Shown: piece after piece, positions 1,923 to 53,155 of the stretch
Layout: each line of letters begins with the position of its first letter
Numbering within the stretch: position 1 is the stretch's first letter
IMG/VR virus record: IMGVR_UViG_3300017917_004576
Coordinates: 1 to 64,000 of that record
From: a virus
Strand: one strand, 5' to 3'
DNA: 64,000 bases
Translations under genes and position numbers: made by a program
The notes under the pieces: generated by a model
Database searches by the model: none
Seen by the model: only the letters and a program-made list of their open reading frames with translations
Told to the model about the DNA's origin: nothing

Positions 1923-1925
1923 CTA

Positions 1926-3450: not shown

Positions 3451-3480
3451 TTTATTCATAATTTAATTTAGAATTTACGT

Positions 3481-3717: not shown

Positions 3718-3733
3718 TTTATTCTCCCCATAT

Positions 3734-3774: not shown

Positions 3775-3807
3775 ATAGTTTTGGTTCTTTTAAGCAAGGG
3801 GCTCAAT

Positions 3808-34086: not shown

Positions 34087-35104
34087 TGATCTGGAATTAT
34101 TATTATATAGAATTTTTTATGGAAGTTTAATTTTTTACTATAATAATGAAAAATATGTTTTAAAATCACCAACCATACCTATTAAATACGAAGCGCAATT
34201 ATTATATAATAATATCATTAATGATGAAAAATATAATGACTGGATAAGAGAAGAAAATTTAGAAAATTTATTAATACTTTTAAGTTTATGGACAAAAGAC
34301 ACCAAAATGATTATTAAGGATTTAGATAAAAAAATAGAAAATAGCAAAGCTGACTACTATTCAAATTTTAAACTTTCTGATAAAAAAAATAGTATCAAAA
34401 AAAATCTTGATAATTATAAAAAACAATTAAATTCTATACTATCTAAAAAAGAAGAACTATATTCTAATACATTAGAGGGATATGCTAATAGTATAAAAAA
34501 TGAATATATTATTTCTCACACATTAATTCAGAACAAAGATAAAGTATTTGTTTCTAGTAAAAATGCATCTAATTATATGTTATTTAATAATATTGTTAGT
34601 GAACTTAATAAATACAGTATATCCATAACTGATTTTAAAAAATTGGCTCGCAGCCAACTATGGCGATCATATTGGAATGTTAAAAAGAATAATGTGTTCG
34701 ATGGAAACTTAACAGATGACCAGAGAACACTGATAGGTATTAGCCAAATGTACGATAGGGTATATGAGCACCCTGAATGTCCTGATGATGATATTCTAGA
34801 AGATGACGATGCTCTCGATGGATGGATGATAATACAAAAACGTAAAATAGAAAAAGATAAAAAACAACAACAAATAGATAATATGAATCCAAAACTTAAA
34901 AATGCTCAGGAAGTTTTTATAATGGCTAATAATGTTAATCAAGCAGAGGAAATTATATCATTAAACAGTCCGGAGTCGTTGAATAGAATGAAAAGCAAAA
35001 TAAGCCATGTGCAAAAATTTGGACAAACAGAAGAAAGTCAACTACCAGATGTACAGTTAGATCTAAGAAATCAACTTAACCAACAAATTAAAAACAGGAA
35101 ATAA
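34079..35104 (+). CDS. Probable tail assembly protein (341 aa)
   Basis: An all-helical, Lys/Asp/Asn-rich protein: 'IFYGSLIFYYNNEKYVLKSP' at the start, a long coiled coil about residues 70-160, 'ARSQLWRSYWNVKK' then an acidic segment (PECPDDDILEDDDALDGWMI) and a charged C-terminal tail. Genes between tail tube and tape measure usually code for tape-measure chaperones; the acidic 'PDDDILEDDDALDGW' element also recurs in such proteins of large phages. Not recognised by name. It does not seem to be linked to the next gene by a frameshift. Confidence 0.6.
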   Translation: MNDDLELLLYRIFYGSLIFYYNNEKYVLKSPTIPIKYEAQLLYNNIINDEKYNDWIREENLENLLILLSLWTKDTKMIIKDLDKKIENSKADYYSNFKLSDKKNSIKKNLDNYKKQLNSILSKKEELYSNTLEGYANSIKNEYIISHTLIQNKDKVFVSSKNASNYMLFNNIVSELNKYSISITDFKKLARSQLWRSYWNVKKNNVFDGNLTDDQRTLIGISQMYDRVYEHPECPDDDILEDDDALDGWMIIQKRKIEKDKKQQQIDNMNPKLKNAQEVFIMANNVNQAEEIISLNSPESLNRMKSKISHVQKFGQTEESQLPDVQLDLRNQLNQQIKNRK

Positions 35105-35107
35105 TAT

Positions 35108-35395
35108 ATGAATAATAGTGAACAAGAATTATTAGATAATCTATACAAAAGATTTCAAACAACTATGATAGGAGCATTGGCAAGATTTGAAGATCATTTT
35201 GGACATTTATGGGATAAAGAACCTGACGATAGTCCAATTTGGGATACTTGGGAATATACTAGGAACAGTATACTAAATAATGGAAATAAGCAAGCTCGTG
35301 CTGCTATTGATGACATTAAAAAATATTTATCAAAGAATACTATTAGTTCAAAATATACTTATAAACTTAATTTCAAAGAGGAGAATAACAAATGA
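35108..35395 (+). CDS. Small tail assembly region protein (95 aa)
   Basis: A helical protein with RFQTTMIGALARFEDHFGHLWD, then TWEYTRNSILNNGNKQARAA. The 'TMIGALARFE..FGHLWg' core looks conserved-type, with a short Trp- and His-containing motif, but I cannot name the family. It sits three bases after the upstream gene and overlaps the next by 4 bp (ATGA), so is coupled to the chaperone-like gene. Confidence 0.6.
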   Translation: MNNSEQELLDNLYKRFQTTMIGALARFEDHFGHLWDKEPDDSPIWDTWEYTRNSILNNGNKQARAAIDDIKKYLSKNTISSKYTYKLNFKEENNK

Positions 35396-36300
35396 AAACA
35401 AAAACTTTTAAGCTCGAAGTTGATGGTGTCGAAAAAGAATTTTTAGTACGAAGCCCAACCTTAGAAAATCAGAGAGAAGCTCAAAAAGTTTATAATCAAG
35501 CTTTTACAGATGCTATTAAAAGTAAAAGTGTTGTACGAGCAAAGCTAGATGATTTATTAGAAGATCAGGGCTTGTGGAATGATGAGAAACAAGCTAAGTT
35601 TACTGAACTACAAAAAGATCTGCTAGATGGAGAAAAAAGATTAGCAAAAGGTGGCTTTAGTTTAAATGAAGCCAAAGATCTTGCTATCAAGATGAAAAGC
35701 ATACGAGATGAAATAAGAGATCTTATTAGCGTAAGAACAAGTTTAGATAATCATAGCGCAGAAGGTCAAGCTGATAATAGTAGATTTAATTATTTAGTTA
35801 GTGTTTGTTTGGTGTATAATGATACTAAACAGCCTGTTTACAAAAATATGGAAGAGTATCTAAATAGCAGCACAGAAAAGGTTGCTATAATGGGCGCTCA
35901 AAATTTAGCTAATATGCTGTATGGTCTTGATAACGATTATGAAAGTAATTTACCAGAAAATAAGTTCTTAAAGAAATTTAAATTTATTGATGAAAAATTA
36001 CGACTAGTAGATAAGAAAGGCAGATTAATAGATAGAGAAGGTAGACTGATCGATGAGAGTGGTCGATTTATTGATGAAGAAGGTAATTTTGTTGATAAGT
36101 TTGGTAACAAAGTAGATAAAGATGGAGAATATTTGGTTGATAGTCAACCATTCCTTGATGAAAATGGAAATCCAATAATATTAGATGAGGAAAAACCCAA
36201 AGATGATAAGGTTGAACCATCAGTTCCAACAGAAAGCCCGGTTGTTCAAGAAGCCCAACCAGTTTCTGCATCAACTGAACAAACAGTGTCAACAACTTGA
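35392..36300 (+). CDS. Tape-measure chaperone-like protein with heptapeptide repeats (302 aa)
   Basis: The N-terminus (KTFKLEVDGVEKEFLVRSPTL, then AQKVYNQAFTDAI) resembles phage tail assembly chaperones, and helices follow to residue 195. Residues 198-260 consist of seven-residue repeats with the consensus hydrophobic-(I/V)-D-x-x-G-(R/N): LVDKKGR, LIDREGR, LIDESGR, FIDEEGN, FVDKFGN. The C-terminus is a Pro/Glu/Gln-rich tail. Chaperones coat the tape measure until the tube assembles; the tape measure gene follows 94 bp later. No slippery frameshift site was found. Confidence 0.65.
   Translation: MKTKTFKLEVDGVEKEFLVRSPTLENQREAQKVYNQAFTDAIKSKSVVRAKLDDLLEDQGLWNDEKQAKFTELQKDLLDGEKRLAKGGFSLNEAKDLAIKMKSIRDEIRDLISVRTSLDNHSAEGQADNSRFNYLVSVCLVYNDTKQPVYKNMEEYLNSSTEKVAIMGAQNLANMLYGLDNDYESNLPENKFLKKFKFIDEKLRLVDKKGRLIDREGRLIDESGRFIDEEGNFVDKFGNKVDKDGEYLVDSQPFLDENGNPIILDEEKPKDDKVEPSVPTESPVVQEAQPVSASTEQTVSTT
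35983..36173 (+). repeat. 21-bp tandem repeats (heptapeptide xIDxxGR)
   Basis: About eight in-frame 21-bp units encoding hydrophobic-(I/V)-D-x-x-G-(R/N). Diverged at DNA level but regular at protein level; the pattern would suit a beta-roll or repeated turn, perhaps metal-binding. Confidence 0.8.
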
Positions 36301-36394: not shown

Positions 36395-39300
36395 ATGGCA
36401 CAAGCCTTTAATTTAACCGCACAATTAAATTTGCGTGGACCATCAAATGTTAGGCAAATAGTTTCGGATGTTAAAAAACAACTTGGTACAATTACTGGTG
36501 ATATAAAATTTAATATTGATCCATCAGCAATTAATAATACAACAAAACTTAGTAAATCATTACAACAACTAAGTTCCGACCTATCTTCTGTTTCGTCCAA
36601 CGCTACTGCGGCAGCATCTGCTATTAAAAATTTTGGTCAAAGTATAAATTCTATTAGTAATTCTTCTAATAAATTATCTTCTAATATAAATAAAACAATA
36701 AGTAGTTCTGGTAATTTAGGAACAACAGTAACAAAAACAGCAAAAAATATTTCTGTAGCACGAACAGAGATGGAAGAATTTGGTCGTCAAAGCGCATTAG
36801 CCATTCGTCGTTTTGCTGCATTTAGTGCTGTAACAGGAGTATTTTTTAGTCTTAATAGAGCAATTAATAGCGGATTGAAAAGCTTTATAGAATTTGATAA
36901 AGAATTAGTGCGATTACAGCAAGTTACTGGTCAAAGCGCCGATGGATTAAAAGGACTCCAAGATGAAATTACAAGACTATCAACTGGTCTTGGTGTTAGT
37001 TCTGATAGTTTAATTCAAGTATCATCAACATTAGCTCAGGCAGGATTAAGCGCTAGAGAAACTGAACAGGCCTTAAAAGCATTAGCATTAACAGAATTAG
37101 CGCCTAGTTTTGATGATATTAATCAAACAGTCGAAGGATCTATTGCTCTAATGAGACAGTTTGGCATAGCAGCAAAAGATTTAGAAAAAGCATTAGGTAG
37201 TGTTAATAGTGTTGCAGCAGCTTTTGCTGTTGAGTCTAGCGATATTATTGCGGCTATACAACGAACCGGTGGTGTGTTTGCAACCGCGAGTAAAGGAGTT
37301 AGCGAAGGAGCAGACGCTCTTAATGAATTTATAGCCGTGTTTACTAGTGTTCGTGCCACAACGCGTGAAAGCGCCGAAACAATCGCTACAGGTTTGAGAA
37401 CTATTTTTACACGTATTCAAAGACAAGGTACTATAGAAGCACTCAAAGAATTTGGTGTTACACTGACTGATGCCGAAGGTAAATTTGTTGGTGCATACAA
37501 GGCTGTACAGTTACTTAGCGAAGGATTAAGTAGTATAGATCCTAGAGACATAAGATTTAGCCAAATAGTTGAAGAGCTTGGTGGTTTTCGTCAAATTGGC
37601 AAAGTTATTCCATTGATTCAACAGTTTGCTACCGCACAAGATGCTTTGAGAGTGGCTCAGGCTGGTCAGGGTAGTTTGGCAGCAGATGCTGCTAAAGCAC
37701 AATTAAGTTTAGCCAATCAAATAGCTAAAGTGAGAGAAGAATTTTTAACATTAATTCGTAGTTTGGGACAAAGTGATACTTTTCAAACTTTAGCTAGAGG
37801 AGCATTAACATTTGCTAGTGGTCTTATTAAGATTACAGATGCTGTTAAAGGTGTTTTACCTTCACTTGCTATTTTAGCAGCTGGGGCTAGTTTTAGAGGA
37901 TTAAGTCAATTTACTAGCGGATTTATTGGTGGTTTGAAAAAAGTTCCAAAAGGAGGACCAGGAGCACAACAACCACAAAGCGTGGTTGGTTCTATTGGAA
38001 GAAATATTGGAAGTAGTCTTGTTGGTGCTAAAACAGAACAAGTTAGTAGAGACTTAGATCAAAATAGCGCCGCTCTAGATAAGCTTTCTGGTAAAATAGA
38101 TTCTTTGGTATCTTCAATGTCTTCTATTAATGGCTTAACATCCGGTATAACTGCATTGAATACCAACTTAGTATCTATTAATAGCGCTTTAGCATCATAT
38201 AATTCTGCATTACTAAATAATACCAATGCTTTATCTAGTAATAGTAGCTCTCTAGAGAATGTTTATGCTGCTTTAGTTAATTTAGATGCTACTTTAGATA
38301 GAAAAGATTTCGGAGGCGGTGGACCAACTACTGCTAGTGGTGGTGGTCGTATTTTGGGTTTCTCTAAAGGAGGCAGTGTTCCCGGTAGCGGAAGAGGAGA
38401 TAAAGTACCAGCATTATTAGAACCTGGCGAAGTGGTAATGAGTAATCGAGCTGTTAATAAGTATGGAAGAGGTAATTTGGTTAATATGAATAAAAGATAT
38501 TTTAAAGGAGGTATAGCCCGAGAAAAGCTTCAAACACTAGTTGAAAAAAGCAATAGTATTAAAAAATATATTAATGACACTATCAATCCAGATGATGAAG
38601 CATTAACAAAGATAGTTCCATTTCGTGTTGATCTTGATGATAATGATTTCAGAGAAATGAAACAAATCATGATAGATACTGAAAGGCAAAGACTTAGATA
38701 TTTAGAAACATATCGTGATGATCCCACAGCAAATAAACAAGTGGGACAGAGAGCCAGAAGCAGCAAAGACCCTAGAACAGTTGTTGGATTTCTTGGTCTG
38801 AAAAAACCAGAATCTCATTGGGGTCCAGGTAATGCTTTTCAACAGCATTTAATTAAAAGACTAAATATTTCACCAAGCGATATGCCCCCTAATCTTGGCA
38901 CACCACAAGAACAATTTAAAGATATTATAGACGAACATTATGCTGTTTTAGACTACCAAGACGGTGATGCTAAATTTTGGAAAGATCTAAGTTATTTTGA
39001 TACACAACCCGGAAAAATAGACATACTAAATAAACAATTTAAAAATGTAGTCAATAATAATCAACTAAAACCAAAACCAACCCCAAATTATGAACTTTTT
39101 ACTTTACCGGATACGCGAGTTTATTATCCTGAGATTGGCACAAAAGAACAATTTATGCGAGATTATGCGGCGTTTACCACAGCAGATTATGCAAAAACAC
39201 ATCTTCCAGCAGGAGCTTATTCTATTGGTGGAAAAATTCAAAAATTTGCTGGTGGAGGAGAAGCGCTACAGTCCAAGTTATCAACTATAAGAACTCTTTT

Positions 39301-42300
39301 GGGCGAATTTTATGGAGGTGATGAACAACTTATATCAAAATCAATTTCTAATTCTATGATAATTGATGAGGCTCGTGCTGATAAAATTATTGCTAACTTA
39401 GAATCATCTAGATCACAGTTGCCATTATTTAAAAAACTATTTTCAGAAAAATCGTCTTCTGTTGGTGTTTTAAATGGATTTCCAATAGCCAGGTATGGTG
39501 CTATTGGTGGTACTGAGACTATGAGATTTGATGAACTAAAAGACGAAGAAACTATTAGAGAGTTTATAAAAAGAGGAAAATTAGCAACACAAGCTTCGCG
39601 TGGTCCGGTTGGTAAACGCATAGTTTATGGTGATCAAAAAGCAGCAAGACGAAGGTTTGCGGTTGGCGGAACAGTAGAGGGCATAGCTGCTAAAGAAAAA
39701 AAATCTATTGAAACTGTAATTTTAGAACAATTATCCAGTTTTGGAGATGCTAGCGGAGTTAAAAAAATACTAGGATTAGGAGCTGGAGAAAGAGAGATTA
39801 GCTCTATATTGAATGCTAGTAATATTAGAGCCGGTAAAAACATAGAAAAAGCTATTAAATTTATAAATAGGGCGCTAGCTAAGACAGGAAAACAAGATGC
39901 TGCTAGAGAAGCAAAAGAAGCAGCCATGAGAAAAGTTGCAATTGCCGGATTATTTCCATTAGATTATAATAAAGATTTTTCAGACTGGAAGTTGGAAGAT
40001 GGTAGAGAAATTTATGGTTATGTTAGAGGATTTCAATCTAGCTTTTTACCACAAATAGAAGCTATGCAAGAGGCCAATAGAGCTACTCGTCAAAAATTTG
40101 CTGAAGATATTCAAGATACGGCAGCATTAGGCGGATTAGGTAATAGAAATATTCAGGGGCCAATTCAACCATTAGCAATAGATTTTGATGAAACACTAGC
40201 TCTTGGAACAAAAATGCTAGATGAAAATGGCGAAGAAGATTTACCAGCCTACTCTGATAGAAAAAAAGTTATGGAAAGTCTAGCCCAAGCTAGACCAACC
40301 TCACTAGCTAAAAGATTGGCCAGTATAGAACAAAAAAATCCTGGATATGTTAGGATGTTTAGTCGTATCTTAACGGCCCGTCCTCAAAGTACGGCGGATA
40401 TTATAGCATCAACTCTTAATAGGTTCGGATTACCATATTTAGAACAAGATGTTACTGGAGTTAGTCAAGGACTAGGAACAAATATAGCAAAAGCTAAAGC
40501 CGCTGATGTTGCAAGAGCCGAAAAATTAATCGATGATAATGAAAAAAATATTAGAGCAACAATGGCTGCTGGTAAAAGTACTTTTCGTTATGGTGAAGTA
40601 CCAGAGCTCAAAGGACCAGCAGAAGAAAAATTTGGACAATCTAATATTGAAGGAGGTATGCTAGAAGCAGCATTATCACAATTATTGGGCTATAATATAA
40701 ATGTTGATGCTTTACAAAGAAATAGAGCGATTGATTTTCCTAATGGCCTAGGCAGAGGCGCTCAACTTTTTGGATTACCTCCGAATATTGAAACAGAAGT
40801 AAAAAGAACTTTGGACGGAGACAGTTTTTCAAAAGCCAGAGAAGAATTTAGTAGATACTTTAAAGAAAATCCACAAGCCTTTGCTAAAGGAGGAACAGCA
40901 ACATTTGGTTCTGGAGCATTTAAATTCCCCAAAAGAATAAGTAATGCTTATGTTCGGGAAATGGAAAAATTATTAGAACAAGAACAAATGGAAAAGGTTT
41001 TTTCAACATATCCTGGTAATGAAAGAATGGTTGTGGACGAGGAGGCTGTGAAAAAAGGATATGAATCTCCTTTTACTAGAGAACTATTCATAAATTCGTT
41101 TAAGGATAAAATAAATAGAAATACAGTTTTTGAAAGAATGGGGCAATTTGCGCGAGTTATAGGATTGCCACCCACCGATCTTTTATCTGCAATACCAACT
41201 CAATTAGACTTTGGTGTTAATTATCCTGCTACAGCATTATTTAGCAAGGATCCTTCTGGCCCAGGAACCAGGGGACTACAAGGAGTGGATCTGACACCAT
41301 ATGGTTATACTGAACAAGATAAACAAGATTTATTCGGATATACTAAACTAATAGAAGAAAAAAAGAAACAAATATTAAAAACAATTAAAACTCCTGTTAC
41401 AACATATGAAGATGGTAGTTTTAGCTATGATACGGCTTTAGCAGAAAAACTAAGAGCAGAATTAGACGATTTACAAAAACAACAAAGATCTCTTATTGAT
41501 AAAAACAATGCGGCTATCAAAGCTGCAAAAGAATCCAGACTACAATCCGCAAACCAGAGTGGTCGTGGTAGCGTTGGCATAGCGACGAATCCATTTAATA
41601 CAAGTCAACGTCAAGATTATAGTATTTTGTATCATGAATTAACTCATCAACTTTTTAATAGTCTTAGAACTAAAAACGCTCAATCATTCGAAGCATACAA
41701 GGCAAAAGTTTCTAGTTTATTTAGTGGAAACAATGATGATGTGGCCGATGCTTTTGATGCTCTGGTTGGAAATACAGGATATAATAGTGCTGATGTCGCC
41801 TATGGAAGAAGTTATAAACTTAGTGGACTAAGCAGCTTGATGATAGGATCAGCCAAAGAGTCATTTGCAAAATATGTTAATAGTGATCCAGAATATATTC
41901 CAGAATTAAGAAAAACTTGGGCAGCAACTAATTCTACAACAACCGCCAAAGCTTTTAAACCACTGAATCCTAAAGTTAATGATATTTTATTAAGAGGTAA
42001 AATAAGCCAAGATGTTATAGATAAATATGAAGATAATGGTAAAGAAGAATTTTTAACAACATTAATACAAAAATTACCATTATTAGATGAAAATCTAAGC
42101 GGAGTTTTGGATAGTACTCTGGATGACCTATTGGGAGGTGCTGGAATAAGTAGACAAAAATTTGCTCTCGGTGGATTAGCAGATTCTAAAGATGCTATGT
42201 CTGGATTAATGCAAGGATTATATGGAAATAGAAATCAACAAACAGACAAAAAAGAAAAAGATTTTGGGAAAATAAGCATTACAGAAGATGGCGATATGCT

Positions 42301-45300
42301 TAGTGTTGGATATCTTAAAAATGATAGTAGATCAGGATATGTACAAGCAATGAAATATAAAGATAATCTATGGTATGTTGGATTATCAAAAGCTACTAAA
42401 GGATATGGACCAAGATTGTACGATGTGGCTATGGAGGCTGTTACTGAAAAAGGAGCTATGCTAACTTCTGACAGAAGCATGGTTAGCGCGGATGCTCAAA
42501 AGGTTTGGGCTTATTATTTTAAAAATAGAGGAGATGTTAAAAAAACACCATTAGAACCAGAAAATTGGACTAAAAATCAAGCACTAATAGACCCTAAGCT
42601 TTATGGAAGAAGAGAAACATGGCCACCAGCAACCGATCCGGCTTGGATACTACAGAGCGGCTATAGTAAGAGCCCTACCTTGCTTAATGATCCAGAACAA
42701 GTAAAAAGAAATAATAATAAAGCAAAAAAACCTATTGATTCTAGAAGCATGGCTCTATCATATTTTCAAAGAGCCGATGGCGGACCAATAAGCCGTTTTG
42801 CTGATGGTGGTTCTGTTCCGGCCTTAGTAAGTAACGGCGAAGCTTATGTGCCTCCTAAACTTGCTAAACGTATTGGTTACGGAACACTAGATCGTATGAA
42901 TCAAGCTGATAAAAATGGTATGGGGCGATTTAGTGATGGTGGAATTAGCGTATTTAAGGGACCGGGAAGTGGAACTAGCGATAGCATACCCACAAATCTA
43001 CCAGTAGGAAGTTTTATAATAAGAGAAAAGGCCACTAAAGCACTAGGTTTAAATAGTGGTGGTATTGTTGGAATAAGAAGATTTAAAGACGGTGATAAGG
43101 TTTCTTATGGAAGAAAAGACACAACTGGTATTCGGATGCCCATGCCTGATCTTGGATTTCTAAAGACAAGCGCAATATTATTAGTAGATAGCTTTAGAAC
43201 TACAGAACAAATGATAAGTAATAGCTATTCAGCCTGGCAAGAGATAGACAAAGTGGCTCCGATTTTAGCAAAGACTTTAGATAGATATTATAGTACTATC
43301 GATGCAACATTAGATGATGCTAGTTTGATGGTGCAAAGCTACCGTGCAGTAGTCGTGTCTTTGGCTAAACAAGGAAAAACAACGGCAGAAGTTGATGCTA
43401 TAATGACTCATTATATTGATGCTCTAAATAAAGCAATAGATACATATCAAAATCCTGCCCCTATAGAGTCTCCAAAATCAACAACAACATATACAGTTAC
43501 TCCACCACGCCCTCGTCGCAGAAACAGATCTTCTTTATCACCAACCCCACCTCCCGTACCCAAATCTGCCGAGCAAAAACTAGCAGCAGTAGAAAACGAA
43601 GCAATTGCTCAAAGAATAGAGTCAAAAGAAAGAATCAAATCAGAATATGACCCATTATACAGAGCAGCATCGTCCAGAGAAGATAAGCAAGCGATACAAG
43701 ATGAAGCTAGGCTAAAATTTCAAGCTGTTGATGCTACCATACAGGCCAATAAAGCTGCTCAACAACAAATAATACTACAAGAACTATTGGCTCAAAGAGC
43801 TAAAGAAGCTAATCAATCCACAGAAGAATATATATCTGGGTTACAACAAGAAATTGATACTAGATCAATCAATATTATGGAGCAAGATTTTAGCAATGTA
43901 CTAGGACCAGATGTGCCGTCCACACAAGAAGCAAGACAACAAGCACTTAGCGAGACTATTAGATCTAGAGGACTACAAGCATTTGATGTGACTGATCTAG
44001 GACAAGGCACCAATATAAAAGATATAATATCACAAATTTCCGAAACAAAAAATAAGGCCCAGGCTGCTGCCACAGCGAACGATTATTTGGCTTTGAGAGC
44101 AAGACTAGCCGGACAAAGTCTTGAGGAATATTCTCAGTCATTATCTGATCAGGCTTTAAATTTAGCTGAACAATTTAAGAATAATCTTCCTAGAGCTTTA
44201 GATAGTTTTCAAGAACAATTATTTGATGCTAAACAAAGTCTTGAAAATATAAGCGCTAGAGAAGCAAAAGGAGAATATGCTAATCAAGAAGGACAAGAGA
44301 GAAAAGCTATAGATATTTCACAACTAGAAGAAAGTATAGGAGATACTCTTGAAAATATTCTAGGAGAAAATTTTTCTGGAGATGATAGAAATAAAATATT
44401 ACAAGATATTATGGAAAAGCTAAAAAATGCTGATTCAACACAAGCTTTTAATGTTCAAAGTCTTTCCGACGCTATAAAACAAATATCAACCGATGAAGCA
44501 ATAGCTTCAAGAGCAACAGCAACAGTCGCTGCCCAAAATAAAATACAACCAAATCAAATTACAGGAGCTACAGCAGAAGCTCTAAAATCCAGAGGAGAAA
44601 CTCAACAACTATTTAAGGAAATCGATAAAATATCTGCAAAATTTAGTAAATTTGGTTTAGCTATAGGAGCTGCTGGTAGCGTTATAGCTAAATTTATAGA
44701 TGCAACAGAAAGTAGAAGTGCAGCGATGGCAGCGGCAGCAATTTCTGGTGGCACATCCACAGCTTCCACGCTAGCAGTTGGTGTTGGACAAGGTCTTCAA
44801 ACTTTAAAAGATTTATCTGATCCTAAAGGATTATTTGGTAACACTGGTATAGGAAAATTGGCTGGATCAGTATTGCCTGGTCTCAAAGAAGTATTGACCG
44901 GTCCTTTCGGAATAATTGCTGGGGCGGGGATCTCTTTAGCAGCAGCTTTTAAAGATGCTTACAATGCGGCACGAGAATTTGATAAGCAGCTAAATACTAA
45001 AACTGTTGAAAATAGTTTGAGTAAAGTTGGCACAATGTTTGATCAGTTTGGTAAAGATATGAGTCAGAAAGATTTGCTTGGAGATATCAGCAAAGAATTA
45101 AACACTGCTATATCAGCCGCTATGAAAAATATTAATATCGATGCCACTGTACCAAAAATGTTTTGGGTTAATATGATAGATGCTGCTATGGGCGGAAGCG
45201 AAGCTGCTCAACGAAGTATAGTTCTTGAAAAACAAGGAGTTGGTGCTTATTTTAATACTATTATGCCAGGAGGGAATCAGCAGTTGGAATCGTATATGTC

Positions 45301-48300
45301 CGATCTTGCTCCACAATTAGCATCCCAACAATCTGCTTCCCTAAAACCAGCTGCTGAAAACGCATTTAGATTATTTGAGCAACAATTACGAACAGGAAGT
45401 TCGTCAGATGACATAATGGATCAACTTAAAACAGCAGGAGGAGGAGTATCACAATTTGCCACAGCTATTGCTCGTTCTAATCCTATTATAGAAGAACAAA
45501 TTATTAAAACTCAAGCACGAGCAGATATAAGCGATACCGAGAAACAAAAAATTGTTGATAGTATAATTGCTAGAGAAGCAGAAAAACAAACTATACTAAA
45601 TACCACAGCAACTCTTAGACAAATAGAATTTGAAAAATTAAATAAGGGAACAGACTCATTTGTTAATAGTTTGGAAAGAATCTATAGCAATATGGAAATG
45701 AGTATAAATAAGGCTAGTTTCGATATTCAAAAACTATCAGCAAGTGCCGATCTTGCATCAGAAGCTTTGAGTGGAAATGCTAAAGCCGGACAGATTAATT
45801 TAGAAGCTATTAATGTATTACAAAATAGAAGAGCATATTCACCAGAACAACAAAATCAAGCTGTTGACTTAGCTGGATCTTTTTTTGGATCAACTAGTCC
45901 CGCTATATCATCAATACTTAATATTGGAGATAAATTAGAAAGTACTATTTTACAAACCATCAATAGAACACGCGGTGCCGAGCCAGGAGCAACCAACGAA
46001 CGAGTATTGGCCAGTATAAGATCAGCTCTTGATAGACAACTAACCGATTTACAAATACCAGATAGTCTGGTTCCATCCATTAGCAATCAAATAAGGGATG
46101 CTCTCAAAGACATATCAACACAAGGAGATCTAGATACTGTTAATTTTAATGAAATAGCAGAAAAAGTTCCGGCGCTAACCAAACAAATTGATGCTGCTAG
46201 ACGAGCACAAGAAACTGCTGTTAGAGCATTAGAGTTTTATCAATCTCAATTAAATGAGTATGCTAATGCTATGAATAGTATGGTAGAGTTGCAATTTAAT
46301 GCTAGTAAAGATTTTGCTAGAGCATCGGATATTATAAGTAGCTCATCTGATGAATTATCTAAAGCTTTTGGTAGAGAAATTAGCTTGAGAGATACTTTAA
46401 CACAGTCTTTGGGTAAAACACGAAGACAAACAGGAGGAGCAACAGATCCTGTTGATATATCTAGAAATATTACAAATTTAGAAAATTCTAGAAAAATTTT
46501 ACAAGGAGCTTCGGAGACCGCCGCAGCAAAAGGACCAGCTGCTCAAGACGAATTTAAAATCATGCAAGATAGGCTTCGCAATAATAATTTGGCATTACGA
46601 CAAAATTTCGATGCTCTAAAAAATTTAGCAGATAGTAGTGAAATAGCTAGCGCTGCATTAAATAAAATACAAGAAATTCAACAAAGAAGACAGGCCGGTG
46701 CTAATCTTATCGAAAAACTTGTAACATCTAGTCCAGAAGAAATTAATAAACTTAATAGTGCCATAGCTAGATTACAAAATAATATGATGGGAGTTGCTAA
46801 TGTTGGAACCACAAGCGAACAGCGAGGAGAGAGTCTACAAGCATTTAATATGATAGCTCCATTATTAGGAGAAGGAGCTAAACAAAATGAATTAAGAGCT
46901 AATGTGCTAGAAAGTATGTTGCTTGAAAGCGGACAGGGCGTCAACCCAATGTTTGCACAAGTTTTAGATAGTTTACGAAATCCGGAAGGTGATCCGGAGA
47001 TGCAAGAGGCTATTAGCGTCTATAAAGAAGGCGTTAATTTACAAGCTAGTGCAAATTCTAGACTTGGCGAAATTAAACAATTAATGTTGGAAAATACAGC
47101 AGATGCTGCTGCCGAGAAATTAAAAGTTGCTATGCAAGGAGTAAAGTTTACATTTGAAGAAACAGTATTAAGTGATATTAGATCAGAAATTATTAACTTA
47201 AAGAAGTTGGTTGAGAAAAGAGGACCCGCTGCTGCTGGATTAGCAAATGGCGGAATAGTTTATGCTAGTAATGGAAGAATGATTGATTTTCAATCTAAAG
47301 GCACAGATACTGTACCAGCTATGTTAACGCCAGGAGAGTTTGTTGTAAATAGAGCCTCAACAAAACGCAATCTTCCATTATTACAAAGTATAAATAAAAA
47401 TAAGGGAGGTAAAGTTAATTATTTAGCCGATGGTGGGATTGTGCCTGGTTTTGGTTGGTCAAATAGAAAAACAGAAACTGAATTACGAAGAAATAGAACA
47501 GATACCGACCTAGAGACCCAGGATAGATTTATGGTTTTTCAAGACGATAAAGATCCTACATCAAGGAATGATAATTTTAAAGAATATATTATTGGACCAG
47601 CAGTATCATATAAACAAGGACCAATCCCGGAAGAAAAAATTACAGGCGGCGAGTTGAAAAATCTCTCGGTATTGCAAAACAGTACTAGAATACATAATGA
47701 TACTCCTGGTTTTTTTCTCAAGACTATAAAAACCTTTTATTCTGGTAGTTCAGACGAATATGGGCGCACAGCACTCCCGATTGTTTTGAAATCTGACAGC
47801 TCTATATCTGAAGAATTTAGAAGAGGTCTTAAAAATATTACATTATTTCAAAAACCAGAAATAATATCAAAGCAGAAACGCTTGGTCATGCCACAAATTG
47901 AAAAATATAAAGAATATTATTCTAAATTAATTACTAAGCTAGATAATAATATTAATTTTAAAGATATTATCGAAAATACTCCAAAAGACACATCAGATGT
48001 TAGCATTAAATTAAATAATAGTACTCCGTATAATGTTGAGACTACGATAGATAATTTATCTAGTATTTCTAAAGATAAAAAATATTTATTGGATTCTAAT
48101 ATTAATGATTTTGTAAAGGATGCTCTGTATCCTTTATTTACTCCAGGATCCACAGTTCCAGCAGGATGGACAGTTAATAATAAAGACTATTCTAATAGTA
48201 AAGATTTGGCCTCTAAGATCAAACCAGAAATACTTCCAAAAGACTACGATCTGATTGATATTGTTAAAGAAAATTTAGACCGTTTAAAAAGAATAGATAT

Positions 48301-51300
48301 TAATAATCCTAGATTTTTTCAAGAAACACAAGGATCACAAAATAGAAAAGAAAATGTCAGTTTATTAAAAGATTTTTATGACGGTAAACTATTTTCGATA
48401 CAATTGGATGATTCTGTTTTAGATGGGGAAAAAGCTAAAGGTAAATCTTTACCATTAACTTTATATAATATAAATAATGAACAAGATTGGTTAGATAAAA
48501 TTAGAAATTATCAAGATGAATTAGACAAGATTGATCCGGAAATGCTTTCCAAAACCCTTCCTATCAATCCTACTAATTTTATTAGATTAGATGATAAAAT
48601 AAATAGAAGTAGTAAGATTTTTCCATGGACAGGAAAGGATTTTAATAGTATAACTAAAATTGATTCAGAAAACTTTGTAAAAGATTCAAGAGGATCTTTC
48701 TTAAAAAACCAGTATTTCGGACCCATAACAACAGAAAACCAAGGAGACGAAAAATCTGGCTTGATGTTTCCTTATAAAATAGTTTCTAAAGGAACGACAT
48801 ATGATGAGTCTATAAGAGGTTTTGATCGGCCTTTAGAAAAGTACATGGTAATATCTTCTGATACAAAAAATGAAACAGCACCCTTCGCTAATTTAACTAA
48901 ATCACTTTATATTCCCGCTACTAATTGGGATGATTTTATCATAGATCTTAAATCACAAATAGAGGCTAATCAAAAAGATCCGACTACTGGATATGATTTT
49001 AATTATGCTTTTAATCCTGTTAATTCAGATTTAAATAAATATATGTCAGCCCCTGACATTAGACAAGCGCAAGAAAACCATGCTATTGTACCATCAACAG
49101 ACGGTACTTTGAATGTAAATGATATATTTTTTAGAAATCAAGCTTATTCTGATTTTCTAAATAAAAAAGAAGCAGAAGAAGCCCAAAGTAAAGCTATAGA
49201 TAGTGCAAAGAAAAAATTTAGAGTAACACTAGAAGATACAGAAGCTTTTACAAACGCTAAAAAAGTTGGCGTTGCACGAGCACTATTTGATATTGGCAAA
49301 AAGCAACTAGGACTAACATCATCAAAACCAACTAATTTGGATGGTGTTCGCTCTGTTATATCGGAATTGAGTCAGAAAGCAACACAGTTGTCTAAAAACT
49401 TCTCTAAAGCAGCTCCAAATCAAAGAATTACTAATCCACAGTGGTTAATGAATGATGCTTATAGAGCATTTTTTGTAGAATTATATAAAGGACAATACTC
49501 TGGCAAAGACGATGATACTCCTCAATTTTTGAAAGGATTAGGATTGCCAATAGATGATGCTGATTTTGGTCCCGGAGCAAACCCTATCGATGTTCCTGGT
49601 TTTAGAGGCAAAAAAGAGTCACCATATCGAGACTATAATGCAGCCGCTTTAGGTCGAGCTCAAACTGCTATTAAAAATATTATTAATCGAGAAATAGCAA
49701 TGAAAAGCGGAACCGCTTTTGCTGGAAAATTAAGCGATGAAGATAAACAAAAACTTAAAATTAGTAGTTCAGATGCTAGAATCTATAAGGAAGGTAGTGA
49801 TACTTTTTATCAGCCGGGCGAAGATATTGTACCTAAGTCATATCAACAAGTTGCTGAAATTGGATTAAATCCAAGAAATGTATTTCCTACCGAAACTTTT
49901 AGAAGTGATAACTATTTAAATGCTTTACAGGAATTATATAAAACAGGAACGGATCAAAATGGAAATCTTGTATTCAATTATGGAGATCCGTCAGCCTTAA
50001 CAGCAGCTAAAAGTATTGATATATTAAAAAATTGGTATACAAATTATCAGGATAAATATTTAAATTTAGGAGCAGATTTTGCAGAATCTCAAGTATCCTT
50101 ACAGGACGCAGCAACACAAGCAGATCTTAATGCTTACAAAGAATCAACAGCCCAGCCAGCTCATGCTTTTTTGACAGGAAATAAATACGGAGTATTACCC
50201 GATAGTAATCGTTTATTAGATCAAATTCAACTAGAGATCAAGGAACCAATTAAGAGAGCAAGAGGTGGATTAATATATGCCTCGAATGGAACATTGGTAA
50301 ACTTTCAACCAAAAGGAACCGATACTGTTCCTGCTATGCTAACTCCTGGCGAATTTGTTGTAAATAGAGCAGCAACACAGAAAAATTTACCATTATTACA
50401 GAGTATTAACAGCGGTAAATATGCAAATGGAGGTGTTGTATATGCTCAGAATGGAGGCAGTATTAGGTCTCAAAGTTTTTCTTCAGGTGACGATGATAGC
50501 GAGACAATAAATGCTATTTATACTGTGACCAAGGCAACTCTTTCTGGAAATAATAGATTAAATCAATTAATTATTTTGACTAATGATATTATTAAAAATC
50601 TTCAAGCTCTAATAGACACTAATAGTTATCTTATTCCTATTAATAGTAATGTACAAGATCTTACTAGTTATATAAAAACAATAGATTTTTGCTGCAGAGA
50701 TTCTGTATCATCTTCTGAAGATAGACCTAAGGATGTACAGGATTCAGCACCAGAAGGATCAGGAGAACCACCACAGATACCTCGTCCAGTTTGGTTAGAT
50801 GAATTAAATAATATTCCAAAACCATCTTGGCTGCCTATTAATATGGAGCCTAATTATCCAGAGTGGTTGCCTATTATAATAGATAGACCAATTTGGCTCG
50901 ATGAGCTAACCAATTTAAATAAAACCATCACAATAGAGCCAAGTTTTGAGATTCCTATTCCATTAGAAAAATTTGGTTGTTGTAAAGATGAAACTGGTCA
51001 ATCCATAACCCCATTACCTAGATATCCAGAAGATCCTAATCAACCTATTACTCCATTACCAACAGTTAAGCCACCCATCTTTGCGGAGTCTTCGTATCAG
51101 CCTGGAGAAAAACAATTATCTGCTAAAGATTTTCCATATGATATAGATGTTCCGAAACAAATAGACATCGCTCCTGCTATGCCGTCCAGAAATAGTAGGA
51201 TGGACGATGTTGACGAAAGACTAGGCGTTAATACGCCAGAACAAAGTAGAAGATATTGGGCAGAAGAAGAACGGGCAGTAGATGACCGTAAAAGAGTAAG

Positions 51301-53155
51301 AGAAGAAACCAATACGAATAGGGCTTCAAGATCATTGGATGTTCTTAAAGGGACAGTTGGGGCAAAAGATGCTGCATATTCAACTATAGAGACTATACAA
51401 GCATTACAAGAAGGTAGAGGATTGGACGCTGCGATTGGTGGTTTATCTATGATTGAAAATATTAGTAATATTAGTCCATTAAAAATGGGACCTGTTGGTG
51501 ATATTGCTGGTATAGCGGGATCGGCGACAAACATTGCAAGGGGCATATATGAAGCTACTGGTGGAAATTTTGACAGACTACAGGAACAAGGACTTAGTGA
51601 TGCATTAAACATAGCACAAAACACATCCTCACTAGCTGGAACAACAGGATTATCAAAAAATTTAGGAATCGCTGGAGTTGTTTTACAAACTGGCAAAGAT
51701 GTTTATGAAGAGATTACTTCTACGCCAGATACTGTTGATGCTCAACAAAGAGGTATAGTAGAACGAGGTCTTTTAGCAGCTACCACAGGAAGCGGAGATG
51801 TTGGAGGATCAGATTTAGCAAAACTAGTAGGTTTTGAGCGGGATAGTTCTGCAGATATCATGGCTGCTTATTATGAGAATGTATTAAGTAAAACAGCACA
51901 AGGGGCAACGGTTGGTGGTGTTCCAGGAGCTATAGTTGGATTAAGCACAGCTACCGCTGGAGAGGTTTATAAAGCAGGATCTGGTCTTGCAAGAGATACA
52001 TCTGTCGCTAGAGAATCTCAGGCCAAAACAGATAGAATGTTAGAAGAAAGCAAAACCAAAGAATATGTAGTGGACGACCAGGGGCTTTTAACCCAAGTAG
52101 ATAAAAAATCAGATGATTGGAGTATGGGCATAGATATAAGCACAGAATCAGCTATTAAAGAAGTGGCTATACTTCAGGATAGAATACAAGAACTTGAATC
52201 TGCTCAAAATACGGGATCCTTAAGCTATGATAATCAGGATATAGCATCAGCAATATCGCTAGAACAAGAAAAACTAGGCTTAGCACAACAAAGATTACAG
52301 AATCTAGCCGTTCAACAAGTAGATCAAGAGAATTGGACATTCTCCGAGCTCGGTACAGATAGTCCAGAAGTTAAAGCTAGATTAGACGAATTTAATAGTA
52401 GATTAGCAGCAGCAATAGATCAACTTGGTTTAGACATAGTAAATAATTTGGATCAAGCCAAATTAGAACAACCTGTTACCAAAAACAAAGGAGGATTGAT
52501 TTATGCTAGTAATGGAACATTAGTTAATTTTAGACCAAAAGGAACAGATACCATACCAGCCATGTTAACTCCTGGTGAATTTGTTATAAATAGAAATTCA
52601 ACACAAAAATATAGACCAGTATTAGAAGCTATCAACAATGGTAATTACAATAGAGGCGGAATAGTTAATTATCTTAATAAGGGTGGATATATTCCAGAAT
52701 ATAAATTTATTGGTGGATTAATGGGATCTGCAGGATCTGCTATCCCATCCTTTGATTTTACTAAATATCTGAATAGTCTGGTTGGATCTATTAGTAGTAG
52801 TATAACAGAAGCTTTCGATAAAGCAGTATCTAGCCTAAAACAACCAAACAATGCTGCTGGTGGTGTATCTAATAACGGGGCCGATCTTACTAGTATTGAT
52901 AATTTTGTTAATAGATTAAATAATATTGCTAATATACTTAGTAATATTTATATACCACCACAAATTACTATAACAGGAAAACATGATGTTGTTGTCACAA
53001 TTAATGGAGATACAGTATTGAATCAATTGCGTCCGGATATAGCCGGAATAGTTATATCTGCTATTAGAGGGGCGTTTGCGGATCTTAAAGCAAAAAATCC
53101 AGAAAATAATACTATTGATTTTAATATAGATATAGATCCTAGAAGATTTACATAA
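36395..53155 (+). CDS. Giant tape measure protein with embedded enzyme-like domains (5,586 aa)
   Basis: Residues 130-490 are a classic tape measure core (TP901 type: IRRFAAFSAVTGVFFSLNRA, FIEFDKELVRLQQVTGQSAD, ATGLRTIFTRIQ). The length sets tail length; at about 1.5 angstrom per residue the ceiling is roughly 0.8 micrometre. Motifs FSKGGS, FAGGGE, FAVGGT, FAKGGT, FALGGL and FADGGS (near 655, 949, 1088, 1494, 1921, 2132) divide residues 650-2130 into cells. They contain a HAD-phosphatase-like domain (DFDET 1263-1267, LTARP near 1327, DD 1380-1381), a zinc-protease motif HELTH (1747-1751) and a GNAT-like segment (about 1965-2050). Residues 2240-3610 are helical, with hydrophobic stretches near 2755-2870. 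Three GTDT(V/I)PAMLTPGEFV modules lie at about 3615, 4622 and 5366. The C-terminus has 'ITGKHDVVVTINGDTVL'. Confidence 0.93.
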   Translation: MAQAFNLTAQLNLRGPSNVRQIVSDVKKQLGTITGDIKFNIDPSAINNTTKLSKSLQQLSSDLSSVSSNATAAASAIKNFGQSINSISNSSNKLSSNINKTISSSGNLGTTVTKTAKNISVARTEMEEFGRQSALAIRRFAAFSAVTGVFFSLNRAINSGLKSFIEFDKELVRLQQVTGQSADGLKGLQDEITRLSTGLGVSSDSLIQVSSTLAQAGLSARETEQALKALALTELAPSFDDINQTVEGSIALMRQFGIAAKDLEKALGSVNSVAAAFAVESSDIIAAIQRTGGVFATASKGVSEGADALNEFIAVFTSVRATTRESAETIATGLRTIFTRIQRQGTIEALKEFGVTLTDAEGKFVGAYKAVQLLSEGLSSIDPRDIRFSQIVEELGGFRQIGKVIPLIQQFATAQDALRVAQAGQGSLAADAAKAQLSLANQIAKVREEFLTLIRSLGQSDTFQTLARGALTFASGLIKITDAVKGVLPSLAILAAGASFRGLSQFTSGFIGGLKKVPKGGPGAQQPQSVVGSIGRNIGSSLVGAKTEQVSRDLDQNSAALDKLSGKIDSLVSSMSSINGLTSGITALNTNLVSINSALASYNSALLNNTNALSSNSSSLENVYAALVNLDATLDRKDFGGGGPTTASGGGRILGFSKGGSVPGSGRGDKVPALLEPGEVVMSNRAVNKYGRGNLVNMNKRYFKGGIAREKLQTLVEKSNSIKKYINDTINPDDEALTKIVPFRVDLDDNDFREMKQIMIDTERQRLRYLETYRDDPTANKQVGQRARSSKDPRTVVGFLGLKKPESHWGPGNAFQQHLIKRLNISPSDMPPNLGTPQEQFKDIIDEHYAVLDYQDGDAKFWKDLSYFDTQPGKIDILNKQFKNVVNNNQLKPKPTPNYELFTLPDTRVYYPEIGTKEQFMRDYAAFTTADYAKTHLPAGAYSIGGKIQKFAGGGEALQSKLSTIRTLLGEFYGGDEQLISKSISNSMIIDEARADKIIANLESSRSQLPLFKKLFSEKSSSVGVLNGFPIARYGAIGGTETMRFDELKDEETIREFIKRGKLATQASRGPVGKRIVYGDQKAARRRFAVGGTVEGIAAKEKKSIETVILEQLSSFGDASGVKKILGLGAGEREISSILNASNIRAGKNIEKAIKFINRALAKTGKQDAAREAKEAAMRKVAIAGLFPLDYNKDFSDWKLEDGREIYGYVRGFQSSFLPQIEAMQEANRATRQKFAEDIQDTAALGGLGNRNIQGPIQPLAIDFDETLALGTKMLDENGEEDLPAYSDRKKVMESLAQARPTSLAKRLASIEQKNPGYVRMFSRILTARPQSTADIIASTLNRFGLPYLEQDVTGVSQGLGTNIAKAKAADVARAEKLIDDNEKNIRATMAAGKSTFRYGEVPELKGPAEEKFGQSNIEGGMLEAALSQLLGYNINVDALQRNRAIDFPNGLGRGAQLFGLPPNIETEVKRTLDGDSFSKAREEFSRYFKENPQAFAKGGTATFGSGAFKFPKRISNAYVREMEKLLEQEQMEKVFSTYPGNERMVVDEEAVKKGYESPFTRELFINSFKDKINRNTVFERMGQFARVIGLPPTDLLSAIPTQLDFGVNYPATALFSKDPSGPGTRGLQGVDLTPYGYTEQDKQDLFGYTKLIEEKKKQILKTIKTPVTTYEDGSFSYDTALAEKLRAELDDLQKQQRSLIDKNNAAIKAAKESRLQSANQSGRGSVGIATNPFNTSQRQDYSILYHELTHQLFNSLRTKNAQSFEAYKAKVSSLFSGNNDDVADAFDALVGNTGYNSADVAYGRSYKLSGLSSLMIGSAKESFAKYVNSDPEYIPELRKTWAATNSTTTAKAFKPLNPKVNDILLRGKISQDVIDKYEDNGKEEFLTTLIQKLPLLDENLSGVLDSTLDDLLGGAGISRQKFALGGLADSKDAMSGLMQGLYGNRNQQTDKKEKDFGKISITEDGDMLSVGYLKNDSRSGYVQAMKYKDNLWYVGLSKATKGYGPRLYDVAMEAVTEKGAMLTSDRSMVSADAQKVWAYYFKNRGDVKKTPLEPENWTKNQALIDPKLYGRRETWPPATDPAWILQSGYSKSPTLLNDPEQVKRNNNKAKKPIDSRSMALSYFQRADGGPISRFADGGSVPALVSNGEAYVPPKLAKRIGYGTLDRMNQADKNGMGRFSDGGISVFKGPGSGTSDSIPTNLPVGSFIIREKATKALGLNSGGIVGIRRFKDGDKVSYGRKDTTGIRMPMPDLGFLKTSAILLVDSFRTTEQMISNSYSAWQEIDKVAPILAKTLDRYYSTIDATLDDASLMVQSYRAVVVSLAKQGKTTAEVDAIMTHYIDALNKAIDTYQNPAPIESPKSTTTYTVTPPRPRRRNRSSLSPTPPPVPKSAEQKLAAVENEAIAQRIESKERIKSEYDPLYRAASSREDKQAIQDEARLKFQAVDATIQANKAAQQQIILQELLAQRAKEANQSTEEYISGLQQEIDTRSINIMEQDFSNVLGPDVPSTQEARQQALSETIRSRGLQAFDVTDLGQGTNIKDIISQISETKNKAQAAATANDYLALRARLAGQSLEEYSQSLSDQALNLAEQFKNNLPRALDSFQEQLFDAKQSLENISAREAKGEYANQEGQERKAIDISQLEESIGDTLENILGENFSGDDRNKILQDIMEKLKNADSTQAFNVQSLSDAIKQISTDEAIASRATATVAAQNKIQPNQITGATAEALKSRGETQQLFKEIDKISAKFSKFGLAIGAAGSVIAKFIDATESRSAAMAAAAISGGTSTASTLAVGVGQGLQTLKDLSDPKGLFGNTGIGKLAGSVLPGLKEVLTGPFGIIAGAGISLAAAFKDAYNAAREFDKQLNTKTVENSLSKVGTMFDQFGKDMSQKDLLGDISKELNTAISAAMKNINIDATVPKMFWVNMIDAAMGGSEAAQRSIVLEKQGVGAYFNTIMPGGNQQLESYMSDLAPQLASQQSASLKPAAENAFRLFEQQLRTGSSSDDIMDQLKTAGGGVSQFATAIARSNPIIEEQIIKTQARADISDTEKQKIVDSIIAREAEKQTILNTTATLRQIEFEKLNKGTDSFVNSLERIYSNMEMSINKASFDIQKLSASADLASEALSGNAKAGQINLEAINVLQNRRAYSPEQQNQAVDLAGSFFGSTSPAISSILNIGDKLESTILQTINRTRGAEPGATNERVLASIRSALDRQLTDLQIPDSLVPSISNQIRDALKDISTQGDLDTVNFNEIAEKVPALTKQIDAARRAQETAVRALEFYQSQLNEYANAMNSMVELQFNASKDFARASDIISSSSDELSKAFGREISLRDTLTQSLGKTRRQTGGATDPVDISRNITNLENSRKILQGASETAAAKGPAAQDEFKIMQDRLRNNNLALRQNFDALKNLADSSEIASAALNKIQEIQQRRQAGANLIEKLVTSSPEEINKLNSAIARLQNNMMGVANVGTTSEQRGESLQAFNMIAPLLGEGAKQNELRANVLESMLLESGQGVNPMFAQVLDSLRNPEGDPEMQEAISVYKEGVNLQASANSRLGEIKQLMLENTADAAAEKLKVAMQGVKFTFEETVLSDIRSEIINLKKLVEKRGPAAAGLANGGIVYASNGRMIDFQSKGTDTVPAMLTPGEFVVNRASTKRNLPLLQSINKNKGGKVNYLADGGIVPGFGWSNRKTETELRRNRTDTDLETQDRFMVFQDDKDPTSRNDNFKEYIIGPAVSYKQGPIPEEKITGGELKNLSVLQNSTRIHNDTPGFFLKTIKTFYSGSSDEYGRTALPIVLKSDSSISEEFRRGLKNITLFQKPEIISKQKRLVMPQIEKYKEYYSKLITKLDNNINFKDIIENTPKDTSDVSIKLNNSTPYNVETTIDNLSSISKDKKYLLDSNINDFVKDALYPLFTPGSTVPAGWTVNNKDYSNSKDLASKIKPEILPKDYDLIDIVKENLDRLKRIDINNPRFFQETQGSQNRKENVSLLKDFYDGKLFSIQLDDSVLDGEKAKGKSLPLTLYNINNEQDWLDKIRNYQDELDKIDPEMLSKTLPINPTNFIRLDDKINRSSKIFPWTGKDFNSITKIDSENFVKDSRGSFLKNQYFGPITTENQGDEKSGLMFPYKIVSKGTTYDESIRGFDRPLEKYMVISSDTKNETAPFANLTKSLYIPATNWDDFIIDLKSQIEANQKDPTTGYDFNYAFNPVNSDLNKYMSAPDIRQAQENHAIVPSTDGTLNVNDIFFRNQAYSDFLNKKEAEEAQSKAIDSAKKKFRVTLEDTEAFTNAKKVGVARALFDIGKKQLGLTSSKPTNLDGVRSVISELSQKATQLSKNFSKAAPNQRITNPQWLMNDAYRAFFVELYKGQYSGKDDDTPQFLKGLGLPIDDADFGPGANPIDVPGFRGKKESPYRDYNAAALGRAQTAIKNIINREIAMKSGTAFAGKLSDEDKQKLKISSSDARIYKEGSDTFYQPGEDIVPKSYQQVAEIGLNPRNVFPTETFRSDNYLNALQELYKTGTDQNGNLVFNYGDPSALTAAKSIDILKNWYTNYQDKYLNLGADFAESQVSLQDAATQADLNAYKESTAQPAHAFLTGNKYGVLPDSNRLLDQIQLEIKEPIKRARGGLIYASNGTLVNFQPKGTDTVPAMLTPGEFVVNRAATQKNLPLLQSINSGKYANGGVVYAQNGGSIRSQSFSSGDDDSETINAIYTVTKATLSGNNRLNQLIILTNDIIKNLQALIDTNSYLIPINSNVQDLTSYIKTIDFCCRDSVSSSEDRPKDVQDSAPEGSGEPPQIPRPVWLDELNNIPKPSWLPINMEPNYPEWLPIIIDRPIWLDELTNLNKTITIEPSFEIPIPLEKFGCCKDETGQSITPLPRYPEDPNQPITPLPTVKPPIFAESSYQPGEKQLSAKDFPYDIDVPKQIDIAPAMPSRNSRMDDVDERLGVNTPEQSRRYWAEEERAVDDRKRVREETNTNRASRSLDVLKGTVGAKDAAYSTIETIQALQEGRGLDAAIGGLSMIENISNISPLKMGPVGDIAGIAGSATNIARGIYEATGGNFDRLQEQGLSDALNIAQNTSSLAGTTGLSKNLGIAGVVLQTGKDVYEEITSTPDTVDAQQRGIVERGLLAATTGSGDVGGSDLAKLVGFERDSSADIMAAYYENVLSKTAQGATVGGVPGAIVGLSTATAGEVYKAGSGLARDTSVARESQAKTDRMLEESKTKEYVVDDQGLLTQVDKKSDDWSMGIDISTESAIKEVAILQDRIQELESAQNTGSLSYDNQDIASAISLEQEKLGLAQQRLQNLAVQQVDQENWTFSELGTDSPEVKARLDEFNSRLAAAIDQLGLDIVNNLDQAKLEQPVTKNKGGLIYASNGTLVNFRPKGTDTIPAMLTPGEFVINRNSTQKYRPVLEAINNGNYNRGGIVNYLNKGGYIPEYKFIGGLMGSAGSAIPSFDFTKYLNSLVGSISSSITEAFDKAVSSLKQPNNAAGGVSNNGADLTSIDNFVNRLNNIANILSNIYIPPQITITGKHDVVVTINGDTVLNQLRPDIAGIVISAIRGAFADLKAKNPENNTIDFNIDIDPRRFT

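What the first reader, a model, noticed from the sequence alone, without database searches (positions are those of the whole stretch)
36395..53155. A 5,586-residue tape measure protein predicts an extremely long tail
The gene is one uninterrupted 16.8-kb frame with a clear TP901-type core. The long-tailed Thermus phages P23-45/P74-26 have tape measures of about 5,000 residues, so this is in or above that class. At 1.5 angstrom per residue the upper bound is about 0.84 micrometre, less if the inserted globular domains do not count. No sheath gene is seen near the tail tube.
Basis: partly seen in the sequence, partly recalled or inferred. Interest (0 to 1): 0.72.

Follow-up and report, generated by a model that had tools for sequence, protein, structure and literature searches.

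The report
Giant tail ruler carrying swappable enzymes
An uncultured phage has a 5,586-residue tail-ruler protein that is long mainly because blocks resembling enzymes, recently exchanged between distant phages, are strung between a repeated linker, so the ruler probably both sets a tail of about a micrometre and carries enzymes into the host.

Summary
Observation confirmed: 36395-53155 is one open frame of 5,586 codons with a TP901-type tape-measure core (TIGR01760, E 1.5e-24). Repeat-driven misassembly is unlikely (longest exact repeat 18 bp). Homologous complete frames in 24 other records run from 2,958 to 7,794 residues, so this one is not extreme in its family. No sheath or baseplate-J gene was found. 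About half of the protein is variable blocks between a conserved N-terminal core, an 85% helical core and a C-tail, bounded by a ~70-residue linker (6 copies). Block 1086-2236 holds a GNAT-like fold, HAD-like motifs and an HExxH motif; the longest relatives carry two ADP-ribosyltransferase domains in the same slot. Blocks of 3.4-3.9 kb are 92-95% identical in DNA between phages whose tape cores are 57-58% identical in protein (dS 0.2-0.3 against 1.2-1.3): recent horizontal exchange. Published cases suggest embedded enzymes count in the ruler, so 0.84-1.07 micrometre is the best prediction; 0.84 is not an upper bound. Tail length, injection and catalysis are inferred. Precedent: the RNA polymerase fused to the P23-45 tape measure. 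New variant of a known kind.

The parts
36395..53155 (+). Tape measure protein gene, 5,586 aa
36395..37939 (+). Core A, aa 1-515: TP901-type core, present in all relatives
   Evidence: TIGR01760 at aa 158-497, PF10145, shared by all relatives
38330..38521 (+). Linker copy 1, aa 646-709
   Evidence: linker HMM, domain E 2e-20
38522..42808 (+). Variable cargo block 1, aa 710-2138
   Evidence: variable between relatives, exchanged as cassettes
40112..40915 (+). HAD-like phosphatase module, aa ~1240-1507 (DFDET at ~1263, LTARP, IDDN)
   Evidence: motifs conserved; relative's copy hits phrog_415 polynucleotide kinase E 5.9e-5; Foldseek weak hits to polynucleotide kinase/phosphatase and 5' nucleotidase
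40916..42169 (+). Zincin-like module, aa 1508-1925, HELTH at aa 1747-1751
   Evidence: motif invariant in copies down to 42% identity; no family hit above cut-off; motif-level only
42272..42529 (+). GNAT-like acetyltransferase core, aa ~1960-2045
   Evidence: AlphaFold model part with bbbb-a-b-a order; Foldseek to many GNAT structures, probability 0.9-1.0, E 0.01-0.1
42809..43114 (+). Two diverged linker copies, aa 2139-2184 and 2179-2240
   Evidence: linker HMM, domain E 1e-4 and 5e-3
44909..47218 (+). Core B, aa 2839-3608: conserved helical tape segment
   Evidence: AlphaFold 85% helix, most residues at pLDDT 70-93; shared by nearly all relatives
47237..47443 (+). Linker copy, aa 3615-3683
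   Evidence: linker HMM E 3e-32
47444..50251 (+). Variable cargo block 2, aa 3684-4619, function unknown
   Evidence: weakly shared by part of the relatives; no family hits
50252..50473 (+). Linker copy, aa 4620-4693
   Evidence: linker HMM E 2e-36
50474..52477 (+). Variable cargo block 3, aa 4694-5361, function unknown
   Evidence: not shared with most relatives
52478..52699 (+). Linker copy, aa 5362-5435
   Evidence: linker HMM E 2e-35
52700..53152 (+). C-terminal tail, aa 5436-5586
   Evidence: conserved end in many relatives
32776..33897 (+). Candidate tail tube protein, 373 aa (position only)
   Evidence: syntenic in all 35 relatives; no hit in PDB, PHROGs or to the P74-26 tube protein
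34079..36300 (+). Two genes directly upstream of the TMP (34079-35104, 35392-36300), candidate tail assembly factors (position only)
   Evidence: syntenic in all 35 relatives; no tail family hit

Best explanation
The gene encodes the tape measure of a long-tailed, probably non-contractile phage. Core A (aa 1-515), the helical Core B (2839-3608) and the C-tail are a conserved scaffold in the tail tube. Between repeated ~70-residue linkers sit exchangeable cassettes (HAD-like, zincin-like and GNAT-like here; ADP-ribosyltransferases in relatives). During assembly the whole chain is measured, so each cassette lengthens the tail. On infection the chain leaves the tube with or ahead of the DNA; the cassettes refold and act early on host proteins, RNA or nucleotides, and the zincin-like module may cut them apart. 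Shown: frame, family, architecture, linkers, predicted helical Core B, GNAT-like fold, recent horizontal exchange of cassettes under purifying selection. Inferred: siphovirus morphology, tail length of about 0.84-1.07 um, injection, catalysis, cleavage.
For: TMP core. No sheath or baseplate J in 20 records. Family length range and block map. Linker only in this frame of the genome, copy number correlates with length, Spearman 0.57, p 0.004. Core B helical. GNAT-like fold, HAD-like motifs, HELTH. ART domains in relatives above cut-off. Cassettes 92-95% DNA identical where Core A is 57-58% identical in protein, dS 0.20-0.34 against 1.2-1.33, dN/dS 0.07-0.14. Literature: TM4 deletion, embedded motif counts in tail length (PMC1796659); P23-45 TMP-fused RNA polymerase (PMC10770324); lambda TMP found at the inner membrane during injection (PMC13190303).
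Against: No virion data; morphology rests on absence of sheath hits, and the tail tube was not identified by homology. Model 1 is weak (mean pLDDT 43), zincin is motif-level, many relatives lack HExxH. Blocks 3684-4619 and 4694-5361 have no assigned function. Bak10/Basilisk shows that equal TMP length need not give equal tails (PMC6145125).
Confidence: 0.62

Rival explanations
1. Only the helical scaffold measures the tail. The cassettes stay folded at the ends of the tube or are packed compactly, so the tail is short to medium (about 200-450 nm) in spite of the long protein.
For: Scaffold parts make up well under half of the chain. The volume of 3-6 copies would fit in 140-460 nm of a 3.5-4.5 nm lumen. 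Equal TMPs can give different tails (PMC6145125).
Against: TM4: removing an embedded hydrolase motif shortened the tail in proportion (PMC1796659). Thermus TMPs, with a fused RNA polymerase and the same P+G content (10.9 against 11.5%), have tails of nearly 1 um (PMC10034513, PMC10770324).
Confidence: 0.22
2. The precursor is cut before or during assembly (by the zincin-like module or a host protease, possibly at the linkers), so the mature ruler is much shorter and the cassettes travel as separate proteins or act in the producing cell.
For: HELTH in the chain; repeated linkers at cassette borders; metallopeptidases are proposed to separate domains of polyvalent proteins (PMC5512222).
Against: 14 of 24 distinct family frames have no HExxH but keep the linkers; P23-45 TMP is full-size in virions (PMC10770324); no Hint or intein domain found.
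Confidence: 0.12
3. The long frame is an assembly chimera.
For: Metagenome contig; no reads available here.
Against: Longest exact repeat 18 bp, upstream synteny in all 35 relatives; same layout in L055, 5,718 aa; cassettes are 92-96%, not 100%, identical in several records with different flanks.
Confidence: 0.02

Closest known systems
Thermus phages P23-45 / P74-26: giant TMP with a fused virion RNA polymerase (PMC10770324, PMC10034513)
   Same: About 5,000 residues, enzyme inside the tape measure, relatives with and without the enzyme, metallopeptidase annotated, no sheath.
   Different: No sequence homology; no RNA polymerase motif DFDGD here; several unlike cassettes between repeated linkers, with recent exchange.
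Mycobacteriophage TM4 and Basilisk-like tape measures with peptidoglycan hydrolase domains (PMC1796659, PMC6145125)
   Same: Enzyme domain embedded in a TP901-type tape measure; counts in tail length in TM4.
   Different: Those are single cell-wall hydrolases; the modules here are of intracellular types (GNAT, HAD, ART in relatives) and several per chain.
Polyvalent proteins of phages and conjugative elements (PMC5512222)
   Same: Unlike enzymatic domains (peptidase, GNAT, ART) in one long chain thought to be injected with the DNA.
   Different: That paper does not mention tape measures; here the carrier is the tail ruler itself.
TMP-related effectors of contractile injection systems, Sle1 and Tme (PMC13277306, PMC11126660)
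   Same: Tape-like helical part plus an exchangeable functional domain.
   Different: Effectors of sheath-bearing bacterial machines; here a phage structural gene and no sheath found.

Membership tests
TP901-type phage tail tape measure proteins | TIGR01760 / PhageMin_Tail core | tested here: met
   E 1.5e-24 and 9.5e-23, above curated cut-offs
TP901-type phage tail tape measure proteins | long gene in the tail module, after head genes and small tail genes | tested here: met
   gene order and synteny
TP901-type phage tail tape measure proteins | protein length sets tail length | not testable with these tools
   needs microscopy
Oshimavirus-type giant TMP (P23-45) | sequence homology to gp96/gp95 | tested here: not met
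   best blastp E 0.22
Oshimavirus-type giant TMP (P23-45) | N-terminal two-barrel RNA polymerase with DFDGD | tested here: not met
   no DxDGD in the window protein
Polyvalent proteins | at least two domains of unlike biochemical activity in one chain | tested here: inconclusive
   GNAT-like fold and HAD-like motifs supported, zincin motif only; two ARTs in relatives above cut-off
Polyvalent proteins | delivered into the host with the DNA | not testable with these tools
   inferred from TMP biology
Polyvalent proteins | belongs to one of the described MPTase clades or LPD domains | not tested
   reference alignments of that study were not available
TMP-related CIS effectors | encoded with a contractile sheath | tested here: not met
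   no PF04984 above cut-off; records may be fragments

The most novel reading that the evidence does not exclude
A widespread family of uncultured phages uses the tape measure as a cassette vehicle: repeated linkers serve as recombination (and perhaps processing) junctions, unlike host-modifying enzymes are gained and swapped there, and tail length, from about 0.44 to more than 1.1 um, is a by-product of the enzyme load.
Probability: 0.4. Interest if true: 0.82.

Novelty: new variant of a known kind. Interest (0 to 1): 0.62.

Why it matters
It joins two questions usually treated apart: what sets tail length, and which proteins a phage delivers first. Near-identical phages whose tape measures differ by cassettes (window and L005: 99.5% DNA identity up to residue 571, then a switch) make 'does cargo count in the ruler?' directly testable. 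A 2023 survey found mosaic signals in tape measures but could not confirm genuine recent mosaicism (PMC10684548); 92-95% identical cassettes in phages with 57-58% identical cores are such cases. The 7,794-residue relatives would predict tails of about 1.2-1.5 um, longer than the nearly 1 um of P74-26.

Tried and rejected
P+G content as a proxy for helical against globular length: rejected, because the Thermus TMPs with tails of nearly 1 um have the same content. Sequence profiles of the HAD, zincin and GNAT modules against PDB: nothing significant. Naming the tail tube by PDB, PHROGs or the P74-26 tube protein: nothing. Foldseek of Core B: no hit at E below 0.001, only generic coiled-coil and tape-measure proteins. 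INPHARED phages: Core A only 21-27% identical to SPbeta YomI and others among the rows listed, middle 2,000 residues no match. Intein or Hint domain: none in Pfam scans of the gene. Strong transmembrane segments (mean hydropathy above 1.6 over 21 residues): none. Host: the only bacterial-genome hit is a 5.3-kb contig in an alphaproteobacterial Lake Lanier bin, weak evidence. Assembly chimera: rejected.

Full report
What is there. The frame at 36395-53155 is real, uninterrupted and 5,586 residues long. Its first ~500 residues are a TP901-type tape-measure core (TIGR01760 E 1.5e-24; PF10145 E 9.5e-23). The window is the first 64 kb of a 120-kb uncultured virus record. Upstream lie terminase, portal, major head, homing endonuclease and fibre-like genes; downstream lie long tail or adhesin-like genes. 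Neither a sheath nor baseplate J was found above cut-off in this record or 19 relatives, many of them fragments.

Assembly error is unlikely. The longest exact repeat in the gene is 18 bp, codon-position composition is coding-like throughout, and four upstream genes are syntenic in all 35 relatives. A contig from a Lake Lanier bin (L080) matches at 96.7% DNA across the upstream genes into the start of the gene. Read mapping could not be done.

Family and architecture. Relatives were fetched with the N-terminal core and extended to whole genes. Besides the window, 24 complete frames (23 distinct; G025 and G028 have the same length and layout) run from 2,958 to 7,794 residues; one further frame (4,916) runs off its contig. 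A map of shared stretches shows a constant scaffold: Core A (1-515), Core B (about 2839-3608) and the C-tail. The rest is variable. A linker of ~70 residues (...GTDTVPAMLTPGEFVxNR...LPLLxxIN...GG...) occurs 6 times here (two copies diverged), 3-10 times in relatives, and in no other frame of this genome; its number correlates with protein length (Spearman 0.57, p 0.004). Core B is predicted 85% helical with helices up to ~75 residues.

The cassettes look like enzymes. In block 1086-2236 the C-terminal module has a GNAT-like fold: Foldseek returns many GNAT acetyltransferases at probability 0.9-1.0, but with E-values of only about 0.01-0.1, because the 1,151-residue model as a whole is weak (mean pLDDT 43). 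The first module carries HAD motifs, and one relative's copy hits PHROG polynucleotide kinase at 5.9e-5. The middle module keeps HELTH in copies down to 42% identity but has no family hit, so zincin is a motif-level call. In the two 7,794-residue relatives the slot after Core A holds two ADP-ribosyltransferase domains above the curated cut-off, with STS and ExE motifs. Weak nucleotidyltransferase-like hits appear in three other relatives.

The cassettes move. The window and G032 (L074) share 3,852 bp at 95% DNA identity inside the gene, although Core A is 57% and the candidate tube protein 40% identical in protein. With G036 (L075) the shared block is 3,433 bp at 92% against a 58% Core A. Synonymous divergence (dS) is 0.20-0.34 in these cassettes and 1.2-1.33 in Core A, so low divergence reflects transfer and not only constraint; dN/dS in the cassettes is 0.07-0.14, i.e. 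selection keeps the protein. Module order is changed in L061, where the zincin-like part precedes the HAD-like part. Of 17 merged breakpoints 12 lie within 20 residues of a Gly-Gly pair against 25% expected (they come from five comparisons and are not fully independent). The window and L005 are 99.5% identical in DNA up to residue 571 and then part abruptly.

Tail length. Published cases give 1.62 (Gordonia phage Hotorobo, PMC4982279), 1.75 (TM4 deletion, PMC1796659) and 1.9 A/residue (Basilisk, PBC4; PMC6145125), hence 0.84-1.07 um for 5,586 residues. TM4 shows that an embedded enzyme motif counts. P23-45 shows that a folded RNA polymerase can be part of a full-size TMP in the virion of an extremely long-tailed phage (PMC10770324). 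Bak10 is a counter-example, with a far shorter tail than Basilisk at equal TMP length (PMC6145125). Composition does not separate the cases: the Thermus TMPs have the same proline plus glycine content as this one. The volume limit is much lower (140-460 nm), so geometry alone does not force a long tail.

Mechanism. Scaffold and cassettes are probably threaded through the tube, measured together and ejected on infection, after which the enzymes act early in the host. Exit of tape measures towards the inner membrane rests on literature (PMC13190303, PMC10770324); activity of these modules is inference. Whether the linkers are cut is open: 14 of 24 distinct frames have no HExxH.

Placement. By the tests made this is a TP901-type tape measure. 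It works like the enzyme-bearing giant TMP of P23-45 and like polyvalent proteins, but it is not homologous to the former, and membership in the latter is inconclusive. New are the many-cassette linker architecture, the kinds of enzyme, the recent horizontal exchange and a family range reaching 7,794 residues. I found no report of a longer TMP, but that literature search was narrow.

Noticed in passing
G025 and G028 (loci L029, L069, L032, L076): Tape-measure frames of 7,794 aa in two records, with two ADP-ribosyltransferase domains, EF-hand-like hits and ten linker copies; at 1.5 A/residue about 1.17 um.
   Followed up: partly
window 1-2000: G+C is 46% here against about 33% in the rest of the window, with negative GC skew; could be foreign DNA or a contig-end artefact.
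   Followed up: no
window 25131 and 25719: A 45-bp exact direct repeat inside the 1,349-aa fibre-like gene 22151-26200, the longest in the window.
   Followed up: no
window 15211-16911: A homing endonuclease-like gene (phrog_3339, E 3e-62) sits between the major head gene and the fibre genes.
   Followed up: no
window 53157-56717: The gene just after the tape measure ends in an FGE-sulfatase-like domain (PF03781, E 1e-9), an unusual domain for a tail protein, possibly a receptor-binding fold.
   Followed up: no
L063, aa 1832 and 4405 of its tape measure: Two different HELTH modules in one tape measure, at both ends of the chain.
   Followed up: no
G030:C1:94330-94965 (L072): The C-terminal tape-measure match contains an in-frame TAG, so the end of that relative's protein may be truncated, read through or a sequence error.
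   Followed up: no
L065, L061, L075 cargo blocks: Weak but repeated cytidylyltransferase-like hits (PF16581, PF01467; E 0.001-0.02), perhaps a further cassette type.
   Followed up: no
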